From NCBI RefSeq assembly GCF_000312305.1, contig NZ_HE999449.1, forward strand, positions 184,802 through 248,801: a DNA stretch of 64,000 nucleotides, written 5' to 3'. Origin of the DNA: Prevotella conceptionensis 9403948. Its GTDB lineage: Bacteria; Bacteroidota; Bacteroidia; Bacteroidales; Bacteroidaceae. Below the pieces are notes generated by a model. It was not told the origin of the DNA and did not search any database. It was given only the letters and a program-made list of their open reading frames with translations. Below are positions 1 to 63,944 of the stretch, in pieces. Numbering within the stretch: the first letter of the stretch is position 1; the number at the start of each line of letters is the position of its first letter. The position numbers were made by a program, and so were the translations under genes.

Positions 1-11
1 AATGGATGCTT

Positions 12-161
12 ACGTTAACAGGTTAACCAGTTGACGAGTTAACAAGTTAACCAGTTAGCGAGTTGACAAGTTAACCAGTTGACAGGTTGACGAGTTAACA
101 AGTAGGAAAAAAGTTAACTGGTTAGCGAGTTGACAAGTTAACCAGTGACAAGTTGGTAAGC
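12..161. repeat. Octamer array 1 (NRGTTRRC words)
   Basis: Tandem 8-bp words run from the first bases of the window: CAGTTGAC, GAGTTAAC, AAGTTAAC, CAGTTAGC, AGGTTGAC and similar. Eleven words follow each other without a break from 12 to about 99, and the register resumes near 110 after a short A-rich interruption. GTT and the last C are almost fixed, while positions 1, 2, 6 and 7 vary, mostly between purines. No reading frame is maintained. The stretch 162-235 shows nothing recognisable. Confidence 0.85.
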
Positions 162-3792: not shown

Positions 3793-3828
3793 TCACGAAA
3801 TTAACACGGTTTACAAAATAACGGACCT

Positions 3829-4012
3829 GTCAACTGAATAACGCCTCTGTCAACTTGTTAACCCGTTAATTTATCAACAGAATAACAGACTTGTCAACTC
3901 GTTAATCCGTTAACTTGTCAACTGAACAACTGACTTGTCAACTCGTTAACCCGTTAACTTGTCAACTGAACAACTGACTTGTCAACTCGTTAACCCGTTA
4001 ACTTGTCAACTT
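3829..4012. repeat. Octamer array 2 with 44-bp higher-order unit
   Basis: Words of 8 bp of the type GTYAACYN (GTCAACTC, GTTAACCC, GTTAACTT, GTCAACTG) fill the rfbD-prfC spacer. They are grouped into a 44-bp unit (five octamers plus ACTT) present almost identically about three times from 3880 to 4012, with a more diverged start at 3829. The array ends about 20 bp before the prfC start. Confidence 0.88.
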
Positions 4013-7689: not shown

Positions 7690-7707
7690 AGGCGTGCACA
7701 ACAACTT

Positions 7708-7747
7708 GCTAACTAGTCAACAAGTCAACTTGTAAACGCGTTAATTA
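7708..7747. repeat. Octamer array 3 (five words)
   Basis: Five consecutive 8-bp words GCTAACTA, GTCAACAA, GTCAACTT, GTAAACGC and GTTAATTA lie just after thrS. This is the shortest instance, together with 41209-41248, of the periodic arrays in this window. Confidence 0.65.
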
Positions 7748-7750
7748 AAC

Positions 7751-9374: not shown

Positions 9375-9380
9375 GTTGCA

Positions 9381-9628
9381 AAGGGTGAAAAGATGGTGTA
9401 AAGGTGAAAGGGTGAAAGAGTGAAAAGGTGAAAAGATGGCTTTCAAAGGTGAAAGAGTGAAAGGGTGAAAAGATGGTTTAAAGGTGAAAGGGTGAGGGGG
9501 TGAAAGGATGGTGTAAAGGTGAAAGGGTGAAAGGGTGAAAAGGTGAAAAGATGGCTTTCAAAGGTGAAAGAGTGAAAGGGTGAAAAGATGGTTTAAAGGT
9601 GAAAGGGTGAAGGGGTGAAAGGGTGAAA
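9381..9628. repeat. Octamer array 4 (RGGTGAAA words), 115-bp duplication
   Basis: Words such as GGGTGAAA, GAGTGAAA, AGGTGAAA and AGATGGTG recur with an 8-bp period. The tract is also arranged as two nearly identical units of about 115 bp (9395-9509 and 9510-9624), showing recent duplication on top of the 8-bp pattern. No coding frame survives. Confidence 0.88.
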
Positions 9629-9681
9629 ATAATTGCGCCCATTAACTTGTTGCCCTGTCTCTCTCAAAAACTTGTCTTATT

Positions 9682-10011
9682 GTCAACTCGTTAACCTGTC
9701 AACTCCCAACTCGTCAACTCCCAACTCGTCAACTCCCAACTCGTCAACTCTTCAACCTATCAACCTATCACCCCATCAATTTATCAACTTGTAAACTTGT
9801 CAACTTCCCTACCTGTTAACTCCCCAACCTGTTAACTCCCTACCTGTTAACTCCCCTACCTGTTAACTCCCCAACCTGTTAACTCCCCAACCTGTTAACT
9901 CCAACCTGTTAACTCCAACCTGTTAACTCGGAAACTCATAAACTTGTAAACTCCCTACTTGCCAATTTGTCAACTCGCCCACTTGTAAACTCATTAACCC
10001 AGCAACTCAAA
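9682..10011. repeat. Octamer array 5 (GTYAACYC words)
   Basis: About 330 bp of words GTCAACTC, GTTAACTC, CCCAACCT, CCCTACCT, ATCAACCT, GTAAACTT and similar, mostly 8 bp long with some 6-7 bp variants. The array directly borders repeat element A. Confidence 0.88.
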
Positions 10012-10051
10012 AAATCACCAACACAAAACTTAATTTATTATTTTTTATTTA

Positions 10052-10670
10052 CAATACTGCTCGAATTTTCACTCCATTCTAGCGAGAATAAAGGTTAAAA
10101 AGCAGGTAGACTACTACCTTTTCCTGCTTTTCCTGCCTCCTAACCTGTCTGTTTTTACGAAAAAACCTGCATTTTGCACCATTTAGCCCTTCTAGTTTGG
10201 TTGCCAGCCCGTAATTTTTCAAGCCCAATTACTCGCTTTTGGGCATCAAAACCCCACTTTTTAACAGTTGTTTTGCCCATTTTGGCCATGTTTCTAATGC
10301 CTCGAAAGGTTTTTGTTTATACCATTTCAGTGGATATTTATGCTTTTCGGCTCGCATTTAGCAGCATTTCGCACTGCATTTAGCACCATTTTGCACTGTA
10401 TTTAGCATCAAATCGCACTGTGTTTTGCACCATATTGCACTGCATTTAGCACCAAAACGCACTGCATTTTGCGGCATATTGTACTGCAATTAGCAACAAT
10501 TAGCCCCAAAAATGGGGTAAATGACGGCTATTTTAAATAAAAATTCATTTTAACAACATCTACAACAAACCCCGTTTTGCATGAAAACAAACCTTCACGA
10601 GAATCGAATTTTTGCGACAAGCTGAGCGATTGTGACCCAATAGGGCACTCATAGTGTTAAAATCATTACC
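10052..10670 (-). repeat. Dispersed element, copy A (about 600 bp)
   Basis: First of three diverged copies (others at 29255-29870 and 42855-43475). Copy A is inverted relative to the other two. It keeps the same block order: the AATCGATTCTCGCGAAGG-like block (here diverged, 10591-10620), six 22-bp units (10354-10485), an AT-rich block, and the GCTAGAA block near the octamer side (10079-10090). It contains a 69-codon open frame that is broken in copy C, so I treat the element as non-coding. The conserved end faces the LacI-type gene at 11102. Confidence 0.8.
10354..10485 (-). repeat. Six 22-bp near-palindromic units (copy A)
   Basis: Six units of exactly 22 bp starting GCATTTAGC, GCATTTAGC, GTATTTAGC, GTGTTTTGC, GCATTTAGC and GCATTTTGC, each ending GCACT or GTACT. 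A seventh, decayed unit may follow to 10507. Units contain the inverted arms seen most clearly in copy C. Confidence 0.85.
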
Positions 10671-11049
10671 GAAAACCATACAAAAAACAATCTTGCTATG
10701 TACACGCACATGGGCAACGGTACGGAAAGCACGTACGCTTACGGCCGCCAGCGCGAACGGTTGCAGTACATGCTGCTCACGGCCAACAGAGACCACATCA
10801 TGTAACGCAGAAGTAATCAGCCATTGACAGTCTGTTTTCAACTTGCAGTCTATGCACCACCAAAGAATAAGATAAATCTGCATAAACAGCACCTAAAAAA
10901 TACAGGGGATGCTGTTTTTGGAGCCTGCTCAGAAAGATTGAGAGATGCCATACAAAGAACAATCTGCGTTAAAATCGTTCATATTTTCCAAATAATTATC
11001 CATTACGCGCACTCTTCTAGGCATTGACAGCGAAAAATCGCTTACGCAG
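10671..11049. other. Spacer between element A and the LacI-type promoter
   Basis: No intact gene is visible. A short frame on the plus strand near 10708-10806 reads MGNGTESTYAYGRQRERLQ and then MLLTANRDHIM before a stop. This resembles the YAYG...RLQ pattern of RHS/YD-repeat proteins, so the stretch may be a remnant of an RHS gene; similarity is short and uncertain. A partial direct repeat (CATACAAARAACAATCT) occurs at about 10677 and 10950. Confidence 0.35.
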
Positions 11050-29064: not shown

Positions 29065-29229
29065 GTTAACTGGTCTATTCGTTGGCTTGTCAACTGGTTA
29101 ACTCGTAAACTGTCCACTAGTTAGCTTGTCCACTCTCGTTGGTTTGTCAACCCGTTAACTGGGCTACTCGTTAACTGGTCAACACGTCAACCTGCCAACT
29201 CGCTAACTTGTCAACGCCCCAACTTGTCT
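29065..29229. repeat. Octamer array 6 (GTYAACYN words)
   Basis: About twenty 8-bp words, for example GTTAACTG, GTCAACTG, GTTAGCTT, GTCAACAC and GCTAACTT, with one or two register slips. It lies between the MATE promoter and repeat element B. Confidence 0.85.
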
Positions 29230-29254
29230 GTTTCTGTCCACTTTTCAGCAAGAA

Positions 29255-29870
29255 TTTTAACATTATGAGTACCCTTTTCGTTCACCAATCGCTCACCTAG
29301 TCGCAAAAAATCGATTCTCGCGAAGGTTGGTTTTGATGCAAAAAGGGGTTAGCATGTGAATGCTGCAAAATGAATTTTTATTTAAAATCATCGTCATTTG
29401 CACCAGATTTTGGACCATTTGCTGCTAAACGTAGTGCATTTTGGTGCAAAACGCATTGCATTTTGCTGCTAAACACAGTGCAATTTGGTGCTAAACGCAG
29501 TGTATTTTGGTGCTAAACGCAGTGCATTTTGGTGCTAAACGCAGTGAAAAATGTTGCTGAATGCAAGTCGAAAAGTATAAATATCCACTGCAATGGTATA
29601 AACAAAACCTTTTAGGACCATTAAAAACAAGGCTAAAAAGGCCAAAATAGCCGTTAAAAAGTGGGGTTTTAGGGTATAAAAGGCTAAAATTGGGCGTGAA
29701 AAATTACGAGTCAACGACCAAACTAGAAAGGCAAAATGGTGCAAAATGCAGGTTCTACTCTTAAAAACAGACTGAACAAAAGACTTGAAAGACTAGAAAT
29801 GGTAGTAATTTACCTACTTTTTAACTTTTATTTTCGCTAGAACGGAGGGAGAATTGGACGGACCTTGTAA
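29255..29870 (+). repeat. Dispersed element, copy B (about 600 bp)
   Basis: Second copy of the element, in the same orientation as copy C. Order on the plus strand: TTTTAACATTATGAG block, CAATCGCTCA, then GTCGCAAAAAATCGATTCTC, a GATGCAAAAAGGGG block, six 22-bp units (29433-29564), a block with GTTAAAAAGTGGG, the CAAACTAGAAAGG block and the TTTTCGCTAGAACG block ending near 29845, then an A-rich tail. The conserved end faces the MATE gene. A 69-codon minus-strand frame (29535-29744) is likely not a gene, since it is broken in copy C. Confidence 0.85.
29433..29564 (+). repeat. Six 22-bp near-palindromic units (copy B)
   Basis: Six units of exactly 22 bp beginning AGTGCA, ATTGCA, AGTGCA, AGTGTA, AGTGCA and AGTGAA, mostly containing TTTTGGTGCTAAACGC or close variants. 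Within units, TGC-N-TTT and AAA-N-GCA arms face each other. Confidence 0.88.
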
Positions 29871-29903
29871 AACAAAAAGCAAGGATTTAAGTTTTCTGGA
29901 TTT

Positions 29904-29999
29904 ATAAGTTTGTAAGTTTAAGAGTTAGTAGGTTTAAGTGTTGATGAGTTCTTGAGTTCGTCAGTTGATGAGTTGATGTATTCGGTAGTCGTTGGGTTT
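29904..29999. repeat. Octamer array 7 (NNNAGTTN words)
   Basis: Twelve 8-bp words in one register, such as GTAAGTTT, GTCAGTTG, ATGAGTTG and TTGAGTTC, directly beyond copy B. The same position in copy C carries array 8. From about 29960 to 30150 the sequence is also alignable with 43586-43770, so the homology of B and C extends past the core. Confidence 0.75.
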
Positions 30000-30274
30000 T
30001 CGTGAGTTCATACACCAGCGAGTTGGTCTTTCGGGCACTTCGTATATGAGATGGGTGTTTATCTTGTGTTGACATCACAAAGACAACAACCCCCTATCCA
30101 CTTATTGCCATAGTAAAAGTACAGACGGGTCCAACATCTAAATTTCTGCTTATAGTACTTTATTATTTCTAGAGAAGAGTGTCGAACAGGTACATTTTAT
30201 AAAAAACTAAAACTTCGCAAATGATGAGTCACAAACATAGATTAACGTAAGTTGGGAATAAAGAGAACTTTGAA

Positions 30275-41136: not shown

Positions 41137-41208
41137 TGTTTTGATAACTTTATCTAGTTTCTACGCCCCATATATATAATAAGGTGTAGCGTAATCGTCC
41201 TTTATTTT

Positions 41209-41248
41209 GGTTGACAAATTAACAAGTTGACAAGTCAACAAGTTGGTA
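41209..41248. repeat. Octamer array 9 (five words)
   Basis: GGTTGACA, AATTAACA, AGTTGACA, AGTCAACA and AGTTGGTA in one 8-bp register between the NhaD gene and pfkA. Confidence 0.6.
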
Positions 41249-41303
41249 TCCCTATCCATTGTACAAATCTTAGCACGCCATTGCACACCCTCCATCCGTT
41301 TGC

Positions 41304-42743: not shown

Positions 42744-42854
42744 GAACAAAAGAAACTATTCAACTTTTTTTTAGCCTATGTCCGTTCTTTGCGCATTAAC
42801 TCCCACCGCATGTACATGTTAGTAGCGCATGCATTTTGTCTATTTTTCAGTATA

Positions 42855-43475
42855 AAATTTAACATAATAAGTGGCCTTTCCGTCAACCAATCGCCCACCC
42901 CGTCGCAAAAAATCGATTCTCGCGAAGGTCTGTTTTGATGCAAAAAGGGACTAGTTGTAATTGCAGACAAAATGAATATTTATTTGATGAAACCACAGTT
43001 TAAACCTGATTTTGGGCTATCTGCTGCTAAAAAAAGTGCAATATGCCGCTAAATGCAGTGCGTTTTGGTGCTAAACGCAGTGCGTTTTGATGCTAAATGC
43101 AGTGCGTTTTGGTGCTAAACGCAAGGTAAAATGGTGCTAAATGCGGTGCAAAATGCTGCTAAATGCAAGATGAAAAGCATGAAAATACACTGCAATCGTA
43201 TAAATATAACTTTTATAATCCATTAAAAACATGGCTGAAAAGGGCGAAATGGACGTTAAAAAGTGGGATTTTAGCGGCTAAAAGCATGTAATTGGGCATG
43301 AAAAAATACAAGCTTGCAACCAAACTAGAAAGGTAAAATGGTGCAAAATGCAGGTTCTGTACCTAAAAATAGACAAAACAAGAGACGTAAAAAGCTAAAA
43401 ATAGTGCCAATTTACCTACTTTTTAACCTATATTTTCGCTAGAACGAAGTGAAAAATAAAGGGACATTGTAAAAT
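42855..43475 (+). repeat. Dispersed element, copy C (about 600 bp)
   Basis: Third copy, colinear with copy B through all blocks: ATTTAACATAATAAG, CAATCGCCCA, GTCGCAAAAAATCGATTCTC, GATGCAAAAAGGGA, the six 22-bp units, GTTAAAAAGTGGG, CAAACTAGAAAGG and TTTTCGCTAGAACG. The conserved end starts about 110 bp upstream of the NhaD promoter. The frame that is open in copies A and B contains a stop here. Confidence 0.85.
43035..43166 (+). repeat. Six 22-bp near-palindromic units (copy C)
   Basis: Six units of exactly 22 bp. The clearest read AG, TGCGTTT, seven bases, AAACGC, A: arms TGCGTTT and AAACGCA are perfect reverse complements. Neighbouring units also form AAACGCA-G-TGCGTTT across the junction. 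Confidence 0.88.
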
Positions 43476-43497
43476 AAAAACAACAAACTGAATTAAT

Positions 43498-43625
43498 GAG
43501 ATTGTGAGCTTGTGAGCTGATGAGTTGATGAGTTGATAAGTTTATGAGTTCTTGAGTTTGCAAGTTGATAAGTTGTTGTGTTTCTAAGTCGTTGAGTTGA
43601 TGTATTTGGAAGTTGTTGGTTTTTC
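43498..43625. repeat. Octamer array 8 (NAGTTNNT words)
   Basis: Sixteen 8-bp words in one register: GAGCTTGT, GAGTTGAT, AAGTTTAT, GAGTTCTT, AAGTTGTT and others. It occupies the same place beyond copy C as array 7 beyond copy B. From 43626 to 43834 no gene is seen; a 78-codon frame at 43664-43900 runs through the repeat homology and is rejected. Confidence 0.85.
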
Positions 43626-43823
43626 ATGAATGTATAAGCCAGTGAGTTGATTTATCCTACACTTTGTATATGAAGAAATATCTATCTTGTATTGGCACCA
43701 CAAAGATAACAAACACCTATCAATGTATTGAAAGATTAAAAGTCAAGACAGTTTTAATATTAAAATTTGCACTAGAAACATTGCGCAAAGTAAAGACAGG
43801 AGGACAAACAATGCCAGATGGCT

Positions 43824-51168: not shown

Positions 51169-51271
51169 AAGCCCCTTGTACTGACACTACAAAGGGGCTT
51201 GTATTGACACTACAAGACGCTTGTACTCGCACTACGAGCCGCTTGTAGTGTGAGTACAAGCGTGTTTGTAG
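51169..51271. repeat. Tandem 22-bp palindromic units after the M64 gene
   Basis: CTTGTA starts at 51175, 51198, 51220 and 51242 (spacing 23, 22, 22). Each unit is an imperfect palindrome CTTGTA-N7/8-TACAAG or near it. The first can pair AAGCCCCTTGTA with TACAAAGGGGCTT (51169-51180/51188-51200). No long T-run follows. The frame 51250-51498 that starts here is not considered a gene. Confidence 0.8.
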
Positions 51272-63808: not shown

Positions 63809-63944
63809 CTAGTTCTTGCTAGGTTTCATAGGCATTCTAGCACTTCTAGGATTTCTAGTTCTTCTAGGGTTTCTAGTTCTTCTAGGGTTTCTAGTTTTCC
63901 TAGGTTCACTAGGATTTCTAGGTTCACTAGGGTTTCTAGATACT
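63809..63944. repeat. Nonamer array (CTAG + 5 bp)
   Basis: About fifteen units of 9 bp, each CTAG followed by five bases (TTCTT, GGTTT, GATTT, GTTCA, TTTTC and others) with one extra base after the first unit. CTAG is kept in all but one (ATAG). It lies after the helicase gene. The remaining bases to 64000 show no feature. Confidence 0.85.

What the first reader, a model, noticed from the sequence alone, without database searches (positions are those of the whole stretch)
10354..10485. Exactly six 22-bp palindromic units in each copy of the element
The arrays at 10354-10485, 29433-29564 and 43035-43166 are each 132 bp, six times 22, though individual units differ within and between copies. 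The number and the period are conserved while the sequence is not, which does not fit simple slippage. Twenty-two bp is about two helical turns, so dyads (TGCGTTT/AAACGCA) would all lie on one face of the DNA, and dyads also form across unit junctions. This looks like a platform for a dimeric or polymerising DNA-binding protein.
Basis: partly seen in the sequence, partly recalled or inferred. Interest (0 to 1): 0.82.

Follow-up and report, generated by a model that had tools for sequence, protein, structure and literature searches.

The report
Evenly spaced 22-bp DNA repeat arrays
This Prevotella-group bacterium carries over two hundred copies of a non-coding mobile element, set roughly every 15 kilobases, each holding about six 22-base near-palindromes, and some related species keep the 22-base step and an even spacing with different sequences, which hints at a shared chromosome-organising role.

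Summary
Genome-wide it is a strong tendency. In 31% of the genome, 59 of 74 measurable copies have six units; the other 15 differ by whole units (3-7). At least 215 copies exist.

(1) Elements lie in intergenic gaps far more evenly than chance (mean 14.7 kb, CV 0.39; random 0.89-0.97). (2) Hoylesella loescheii, H. shahii and three of four other sampled genus members have 22-bp-period arrays, several with unrelated units. In this genome and the two Hoylesella, a sequence-blind scan at seven periods found arrays almost only at 22. (3) The element is mobile: IS5-type inverted ends and 3-bp duplications in part of the copies, transposase remnants, two intact transposases, positions mostly not shared with a sister species. 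Element-bearing gaps are enriched for an older 22-bp array in the sister.

Dyad arms show no general covariation, so hairpins or cruciforms are unlikely. Units keep their order between copies, so six is largely inherited. Best reading: a MITE-type element carrying a tandem binding platform for an unidentified dimeric protein, perhaps organising the chromosome. Protein and function are inferred, not shown.

The parts
10026..10676 (-). copy 1 of the element core (about 650 bp)
   Evidence: nhmmer with the core profile
10354..10485 (-). copy 1 array, six 22-bp units (class A)
10701..10802 (+). 34-codon fragment beside copy 1 that recurs beside other cores; called Rhs-like from recall, no Pfam match
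   Evidence: tblastn in the window (the query was read from this place); near 24 of 87 clusters; Pfam without match
10821..10856 (-). 12-codon remnant resembling an IS5-type (DUF4096) transposase start
   Evidence: tblastn E 0.007
9794..9929 (.). degenerate 16-bp satellite on the right side of copy 1 (in element orientation)
   Evidence: TRF
29241..29894 (+). copy 2 of the element core
   Evidence: nhmmer
29303..29326 (+). conserved left motif GCAAAAAATCGATTCTCGCGAAGG of copy 2, exact
   Evidence: C7:214104-214127
29433..29564 (+). copy 2 array, six 22-bp units
29901..30049 (+). GAGTTGAT-type satellite after copy 2, shared with copy 3
   Evidence: the repeat finder family D7
42843..43486 (+). 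copy 3 of the element core
   Evidence: nhmmer
42905..42928 (+). conserved left motif of copy 3, exact
   Evidence: C7:227706-227729
43035..43166 (+). copy 3 array, six 22-bp units
43728..43755 (-). probable right terminal inverted repeat of copy 3 (22 of 28 letters; the best misplaced match in the regions scanned reaches 20)
51175..51262 (.). class C array, TTGTANNNNNNNTACAA-type units at 22-bp period, outside any core
   Evidence: TRF, class C scans, units printed

Best explanation
The array is the cargo of a family of non-coding, IS5-type MITE-like elements. SHOWN: a conserved core of about 650 bp (left motif, array of about six 22-bp units, right part); terminal inverted repeats, transposase-start remnants and a 3-bp target duplication in part of the copies; intergenic positions that mostly differ from the sister species H. 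shahii; spacing far more even than random; arrays of the same 22-bp period with unrelated units in related species; enrichment of element-bearing gaps for a class C array in the sister. INFERRED: each unit is a degenerate binding site for a dimer of a DNA-binding protein that assembles side by side on the array. The protein's need for a 22-bp step conserves the period while specificity and unit sequence drift together. The even placement at about 12-15 kb reflects a role in chromosome organisation (for example DNA wrapping or domain anchoring), with copies too close together, or missing over long stretches, disfavoured.
For: Copy number: 215 sites within 3 mismatches of the left motif, reversed control 0. 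Six units in 59 of 74, deviations in whole units. Period: 62 and 28 arrays at 22; at six other periods only one array, at 33. Spacing: 83 intervals, mean 14.66 kb, CV 0.387; uniform random mean CV 0.966, minimum of 5000 draws 0.69; random intergenic gaps mean 0.887-0.930, minimum 0.635; near-full copies only: 76 intervals, CV 0.417. H. loescheii: 24 intervals, 13.9 kb, CV 0.323, 0 of 5000 null draws as low. G061: 2 intervals under 5 kb against 18.2 expected, 0 of 20000 as few; all 138 in-array offsets on one 22-bp grid. Mobility: 54 of 55 TIR-like sites near cores point inward, 15 of 79 cores have both ends; 3-bp duplication in 5 of 14 readable pairs; transposase start near 29 of 87 clusters, two intact 276-aa ORFs, one tested in Pfam: DUF4096 and DDE_Tnp_1 above cut-off. 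Class replacement: a class C array in the syntenic H. shahii gap for 3 of 6 element-bearing own gaps against 1 of 138 others, p 1.6e-4.
Against: No binding protein was identified and no binding data exist. Dyad arms do not covary in general, and class A's most invariant bases form an asymmetric motif (TGNNGCNAAA), so class A may not be a symmetric dimer site. Six units is partly inherited. Even spacing could come from the insertion process. One of four other genus genomes sampled, G045, showed no clear 22-bp array but 21-, 23- and 24-bp tandem repeats. G061's overall CV (0.78, p 0.009) is only mildly low and it has long gaps, up to 111 kb. Adding class C arrays does not make this genome's spacing more even (CV 0.406); the midpoint placement of class C rests on 8 arrays and a 2-kb cut chosen after seeing the positions. 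In H. loescheii only 3 left motifs were found in 400 kb holding 28 class B arrays. One of the 3 class C coincidences is an array-only site, not a full element.
Confidence: 0.45

Rival explanations
1. Purely selfish MITE: the array is passive cargo or a transposase-binding site, and even spacing arises from insertion biology, such as exclusion of new insertions near existing copies (target immunity) or insertion into already spaced older arrays.
For: TIRs, 3-bp duplications, transposase remnants and intact transposases; with H. shahii 6 own-only gaps, 2 shahii-only, 0 shared (one on each side is array-only); association with class C gaps; few short intervals, as exclusion would give; long gaps in G061.
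Against: Short intervals are also avoided by arrays with other units, including G061, where the two arrays read show no MITE body by eye. In this genome long gaps are scarce too (2 of 83 intervals above 25 kb), which exclusion alone does not give unless saturated. From recall, IS5-family elements are not known for target immunity. The 22-bp step is invariant across unrelated units.
Confidence: 0.33
2. Transcribed structured RNA or cruciform: each palindromic unit folds into a hairpin (7-bp stems can be drawn across unit junctions).
For: Consensus dyads; hairpins can be drawn across junctions (sequences); class B pair 7-11 has more Watson-Crick pairs than expected (52 against 37).
Against: No general arm covariation in 454 class A or 132 class B units. 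Over 56 copies only 4 of the 60 strongest distant pairs are compensatory and over 80% paired. No Rfam match in the window. Among tandem gaps the element runs with the genes in 21 and against them in 28.
Confidence: 0.07
3. Regulatory or terminator element: arrays act as promoters, insulators or terminators for adjacent genes, as proposed for BrickBuilt and BOX.
For: 85 of 87 clusters fall in gaps between called genes and none inside one; convergent gaps carry an element more often (21 of 88) than tandem gaps (49 of 546); BrickBuilt segments contain promoter elements active in both directions (PMC4596501, abstract).
Against: Divergent gaps carry it too (15 of 85), and tandem gaps include operon-internal ones, so the preference is weak. 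Matching gaps of H. shahii lack the element.
Confidence: 0.12

Closest known systems
BrickBuilt, MITE of Porphyromonas gingivalis (PMC4596501; abstract and sections 5, 7 part 1 and 9 read)
   Same: Non-coding, intergenic MITE of a Bacteroidales species with IS5-type ends, a leader, a head-to-tail short repeat array and a tail; units differ within and between copies.
   Different: 23-nt unit, 19 copies in ATCC 33277, 1 to 22.8 units per copy and TIRs like ISPg1/ISPg9. Here 22 bp, 215 or more copies, 80% of measured copies with six units, another TIR and an even chromosomal distribution; spacing regularity is not described in the sections read.
BOX elements of Streptococcus pneumoniae (PMC3049150; passages read)
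   Same: Left module, variable number of inner modules (boxB), right module; interspersed, many copies.
   Different: Other module sizes as far as I recall; boxB number varies, and the abstract favours a parasitic nature; no even spacing in the passages read. Sequences were not compared.
REP/BIME palindromes of enterobacteria (recalled)
   Same: Interspersed intergenic palindromes in arrays, reported to bind gyrase, IHF and Pol I (recalled).
   Different: Not built on one exact period kept across unrelated sequences, and not evenly spaced, as far as I recall.
Lrp-family binding arrays of archaea (PMC2995911; passages read)
   Same: Dimers generally recognise imperfect inverted repeats of 13-17 bp, adjacent sites are spaced centre to centre by two or three helical turns, and DNA can wrap around the oligomer.
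   Different: The examples in the passages are control regions of genes, not hundreds of spaced copies; no link to a protein was tested here.

Membership tests
MITE (non-autonomous IS-derived element) | terminal inverted repeats bounding the element | tested here: met
   54 of 55 TIR-like sites near cores point inward; only 15 of 79 cores keep a recognisable pair
MITE (non-autonomous IS-derived element) | target-site duplication | tested here: met
   3-bp duplication in 5 of 14 readable pairs, read by eye; 9 of 14 show none; chance 1 in 64 each
MITE (non-autonomous IS-derived element) | no intact transposase inside; related autonomous element in the genome | tested here: met
   a transposase start lies near 29 of 87 clusters; two intact 276-aa ORFs lie next to truncated cores; one tested with Pfam has DUF4096 and DDE_Tnp_1
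BrickBuilt | 23-nt repeat unit | tested here: not met
   22 bp
BrickBuilt | TIRs like GAGACCTTTGCA (paper Table 2) | tested here: not met
   TIR here GAAGTCGTCTTGACTTTTAAT; compared by eye
BOX element | boxA-boxB-boxC sequence homology | not tested
   no sequence comparison made
CRISPR array | repeats separated by unique spacers | tested here: not met
   units are contiguous at 22 bp without spacers
structured RNA family of Rfam | match to a covariance model | tested here: not met
   no match at gathering score in the window
Lrp/AsnC-type operator array | binding by an Lrp/AsnC protein | not testable with these tools
   needs pull-down or footprinting

The most novel reading that the evidence does not exclude
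Members of the GTDB genus around this genome carry a chromosome-wide track of protein-binding arrays, one about every 10-15 kb in the densest species. The 22-bp step and approximate array length are under selection while the recognised sequence turns over from species to species. Older arrays are replaced by mobile elements that bring newer ones, much as centromeric satellites turn over. The track would set nucleoprotein wraps or boundaries of domains of about 12 kb.
Probability: 0.3. Interest if true: 0.95.

Novelty: new variant of a known kind. Interest (0 to 1): 0.8.

Why it matters
Bacterial chromosomes are thought to be divided into supercoiled domains of roughly 10 kb (recalled), but no evenly spaced sequence element marking such a scale is known to me. 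A set of arrays at about that spacing, with one invariant geometry and species-specific sequence, would give a sequence handle on the question: delete, move or add arrays and read the domain structure. If the rival is right instead, it would be a striking case of a mobile element that spaces itself along a chromosome.

Tried and rejected
Hairpin or cruciform pairing: disfavoured by arm covariation tests (with the class B exception at pair 7-11) and whole-core covariation. Slippage-homogenised minisatellite: disfavoured, since units keep their index identity between copies and units of one copy are no more alike than units of different copies. Orthologous positions: 0 of 8 informative syntenic gaps shared with H. 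shahii, one of one with H. loescheii (genes called by my own script, not a gene finder). Deletion between neighbouring direct copies as the cause of spacing: intervals under 10 kb are 6 of 9 in the same orientation, not depleted. Phage origin: two exact viral-contig hits of an 18-base motif lie in sequence without further resemblance to the core (4.8 bits, E 0.12). Whole-element search in 100 genus genomes: own plus two short hits of 38 and 27 bp in the array part. Core motif in 398 genus genomes: 3 positive. Class A unit pair in 120 genomes: 9 positive, the own with 484 hits and eight others with 1-6 hits each, controls 0. One search, meant for class C, carried a spacing error of mine (period 21 instead of 22) and says nothing about class C; it gave 5 of 120 positive. 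In the four other genomes a looser scan also gave hits at periods 18-21, 23-25 and 27, most of them one AT-rich spot in G045. Literature: searches with Prevotella or Bacteroidetes plus repeat, palindrome, 22-bp, spacing or MITE terms, or on evenly spaced palindromes in bacterial chromosomes, and for BrickBuilt (41) listed BrickBuilt, two other papers that mention it (not read) and otherwise unrelated papers or nothing; only an open-licence library was searched. C2:184.8-225.9 kb, the longest gap, was listed but its genes were not identified.

Full report
WHAT WAS CLAIMED AND WHAT IS THERE. In the window this is right: 10354-10485, 29433-29564 and 43035-43166 are 132 bp each and split into six 22-mers (TRF). 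Each lies in an element core of about 650 bp: 10026-10676 (minus), 29241-29894 (plus) and 42843-43486 (plus). The window is part of contig C7 of a 4.08-Mb draft genome in a GTDB genus from which 398 genomes were drawn. Named carriers of the core motif are Hoylesella shahii and H. loescheii, formerly Prevotella (recalled).

COPY NUMBER AND UNIT NUMBER. The left motif GCAAAAAATCGATTCTCGCGAAGG occurs 215 times within three mismatches in the genome, control 0. In the stretches fetched (C1 and C2 complete plus 144 kb of C7 with the window) a profile finds 87 clusters, 79 near full length. Thirty aligned copies, picked for likeness to copy 2 apart from two of the window, are 63-88% identical pairwise. 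Of the 79, 74 have both anchors: 59 have six units, 8 five, 2 four, 1 three and 4 seven; every deviation is a whole unit within 1 bp. Units of the same index in different copies are 0.778 identical, other units of the same copy 0.718, unrelated units 0.715 (54 six-unit copies). So arrays descend as ordered blocks with occasional gain or loss of units and are not homogenised by slippage. Six is partly ancestry.

PERIOD. A scan that knows no sequence (dyads repeated three times at a given step) finds 62 arrays at period 22 in 1.26 Mb of this genome and 28 in 784 kb of the two relatives. At 20, 21, 23, 24 and 32 it finds none in either set; at 33 one in the relatives; shuffled sequence gives none.

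DYADS. Class A consensus is CAAAACGCAGTGCGTTTTG plus 3 bp. In 454 units, 7 of 9 dyad pairs have as many or fewer Watson-Crick pairs than independence predicts (pair 5-13: 158 against 204) and two slightly more; the strongest couplings are mostly between near neighbours. The most invariant bases give an asymmetric motif, TGNNGCNAAA. Class B of H. loescheii (GTTCCANNTNANNTGGAAC, 132 units) shows one pair clearly above expectation (7-11: 52 against 37), one slightly (3-15: 85 against 77) and the rest near or below. Over 56 whole cores only 4 of the 60 strongest distant pairs are compensatory and over 80% paired, and Rfam gives no match in the window. Symmetry in the consensus without pairing in single units is what degenerate protein half-sites would give; hairpins would give covariation.

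OTHER SPECIES. H. shahii has copies close to ours and a divergent subfamily. H. loescheii carries a different array, class B: 28 arrays in 400 kb, scored at five units in 20, four in 7 and three in 1 (unit counts depend on a score cut-off). The left motif, about 90 bp, was found at only 3 places in the same 400 kb, each with a class B array a few hundred bases away; 30 of 54 class B flanks resemble a flank of another array, so a shared body exists but is mostly beyond our profile. All three species also carry class C arrays (TTGTANNNNNNNTACAA type, 22 bp): 15 in the own stretches, 6 in H. shahii, 6 in H. loescheii, including window 51175-51262. Of 398 genus genomes only the own one, G178 and G293 have the core motif; their hit coordinates agree with H. 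shahii and H. loescheii. Four other genomes were sampled for 100 kb each: G016, G024 and G061 have 22-bp arrays of further sequences; G045 has none that is clear, but tandem repeats of 21, 23 and 24 bp. G024's unit resembles class A by eye. In G061 the unit CAATTTCGCCCAATTTGC has 272 hits within two mismatches, control 0. The listing reaches 1.786 Mb for both strands; 188 of the 200 listed hits lie there and form 86 arrays, with all 75 same-strand offsets at 0 and all 63 opposite-strand offsets at 21 modulo 22.

SPACING. 83 intervals (86 of 87 clusters; one weak partial dropped) have mean 14.66 kb and CV 0.387; uniform placement gives 0.966 on average and never below 0.69 in 5000 draws. Placement among intergenic gaps gives 0.887-0.930 on average, never below 0.635. 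Six intervals are below 8 kb, 33-35 expected. With near-full copies only: 76 intervals, mean 16.0 kb, CV 0.417, three below 8 kb. H. loescheii: 24 intervals, 13.9 kb, CV 0.323, 0 of 5000 draws as low. H. shahii: 13 intervals, 22.3 kb, CV 0.406, p 0.0034 (hits closer than 1.5 kb were merged, and the null forbids them too). Adding class C arrays gives 11.9 kb (CV 0.26) and 16.7 kb (CV 0.385) there. In this genome the eight class C arrays with class A on both sides and more than 2 kb away sit nearer the middle of intervals than intergenic sites do (p 0.0014; small n, and the 2-kb cut was set after seeing the positions); six others lie within 1.4 kb of a class A site; adding class C leaves the CV about the same (0.406). 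G061: 2 intervals below 5 kb against 18.2 expected, most common interval 10-12.5 kb, but overall CV 0.78 (p 0.009) with gaps up to 111 kb; arrays with more diverged units would be missed.

MOBILITY. 85 of 87 clusters fall in gaps between genes called by my script, none inside one. Between genes matching H. shahii, an element or array was present here only in 6 gaps, there only in 2, in both in 0, in neither in 136; one on each side is an array-only site, and one H. shahii gap also holds an extra gene. With H. loescheii one gap has both and 16 neither. Around cores, 24 left and 30 of 31 right TIR-like sites (GAAGTCGTCTTGACTTTTAATATTTCTA) point inward, and 15 of 79 cores have both. Elements are then 1.03-1.45 kb, and 5 of 14 readable pairs show a 3-bp target duplication, read by eye. 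A transposase start lies near 29 of 87 clusters and an Rhs-like fragment near 24. Genome-wide the transposase start gives 82 matches, some of them two pieces of one place; the best two lie in open frames above 300 codons. These are intact 276-aa ORFs next to truncated cores; the one tested has DUF4096 and DDE_Tnp_1 above cut-off. The window's copies are worn: copy 3 has a probable right TIR (22 of 28), copy 2 at best 19 of 28 and copy 1 none at its ends, and a misplaced match reaches 20, so only copy 3 stands out. The syntenic H. shahii gap holds a class C array in 3 of 6 element-bearing own gaps, against 1 of 138 others (p 1.6e-4; one of the three is array-only and still has its own class C array). 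One own insertion has class C-like units on both sides, by eye (C2 330218). Older arrays thus seem to be replaced by newer ones at the same sites.

HOW IT MOST LIKELY WORKS. Shown: a mobile non-coding element, an ordered 22-bp array as its most conspicuous cargo, even spacing, and an association between array classes at the same sites. Inferred: the array binds dimers side by side. Archaeal Lrp-type proteins bind sites two or three turns apart and wrap DNA (PMC2995911, passages read), which makes this family a reasonable first candidate and no more. Even spacing over different unit classes and species argues that placement, not one transposon, is under constraint. The selfish rival with insertion exclusion remains open at about one in three.

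COMPARISON. The anatomy is that of a MITE with a minisatellite, as BrickBuilt (PMC4596501, abstract and sections 5, 7 part 1 and 9 read), but unit length and TIR differ, so it is not a BrickBuilt member. BOX elements (PMC3049150, passages read) share the modular plan only. I found no report of evenly spaced arrays of this kind, which cover only an open-licence library.

Noticed in passing
window 1-154, 3817-4011, 7700-7749, 9380-9929, 29065-29228, 29901-30049, 41202-41251, 43496-43615: Degenerate 8-bp-step satellites (GTTAACAA/GTTGACGA type and GAGTTGAT type) fill many intergenic regions, with or without the element.
   Followed up: partly
window 63835-63939: A separate 9/18-bp satellite, TTCTAGGTT type.
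   Followed up: no
both ends of the core; clearest at C7:166.5-167.2 kb and in H. shahii: Both core ends carry a similar direct repeat, TGTAAAATATT-N-TTTAACA, seen by eye, without any known role.
   Followed up: partly
window 10701-10802; near 24 of 87 clusters in the fetched stretches: A short Rhs-like coding fragment lies beside a transposase-start fragment left of many cores; a captured cargo of unknown meaning.
   Followed up: partly
L127 and L128 (Bacteroidaceae MAGs from roe deer and yak): The motif AAAAAATCGATTCTCGCGAAGG occurs once in each, near a gene that looked like deoC by eye (recalled), with an inverted GAGAATCG nearby; the motif may be older than the element.
   Followed up: no
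L131, H. loescheii contig of 34.8 kb: One class A element with a typical array sits in H. loescheii, whose other arrays read here are class B and C; transfer, or a contaminating contig.
   Followed up: no
G124 contig C35 near 24.6 kb and G208 contig C3 near 83.2 kb: AAAAGCAGTGC units stand in tandem at 22-bp steps in two further genus genomes.
   Followed up: no
G024 position 58.9 kb of the stretch read: An inverted repeat around TTTCTATATAGAAACG lies beside 22-bp units in another species.
   Followed up: no
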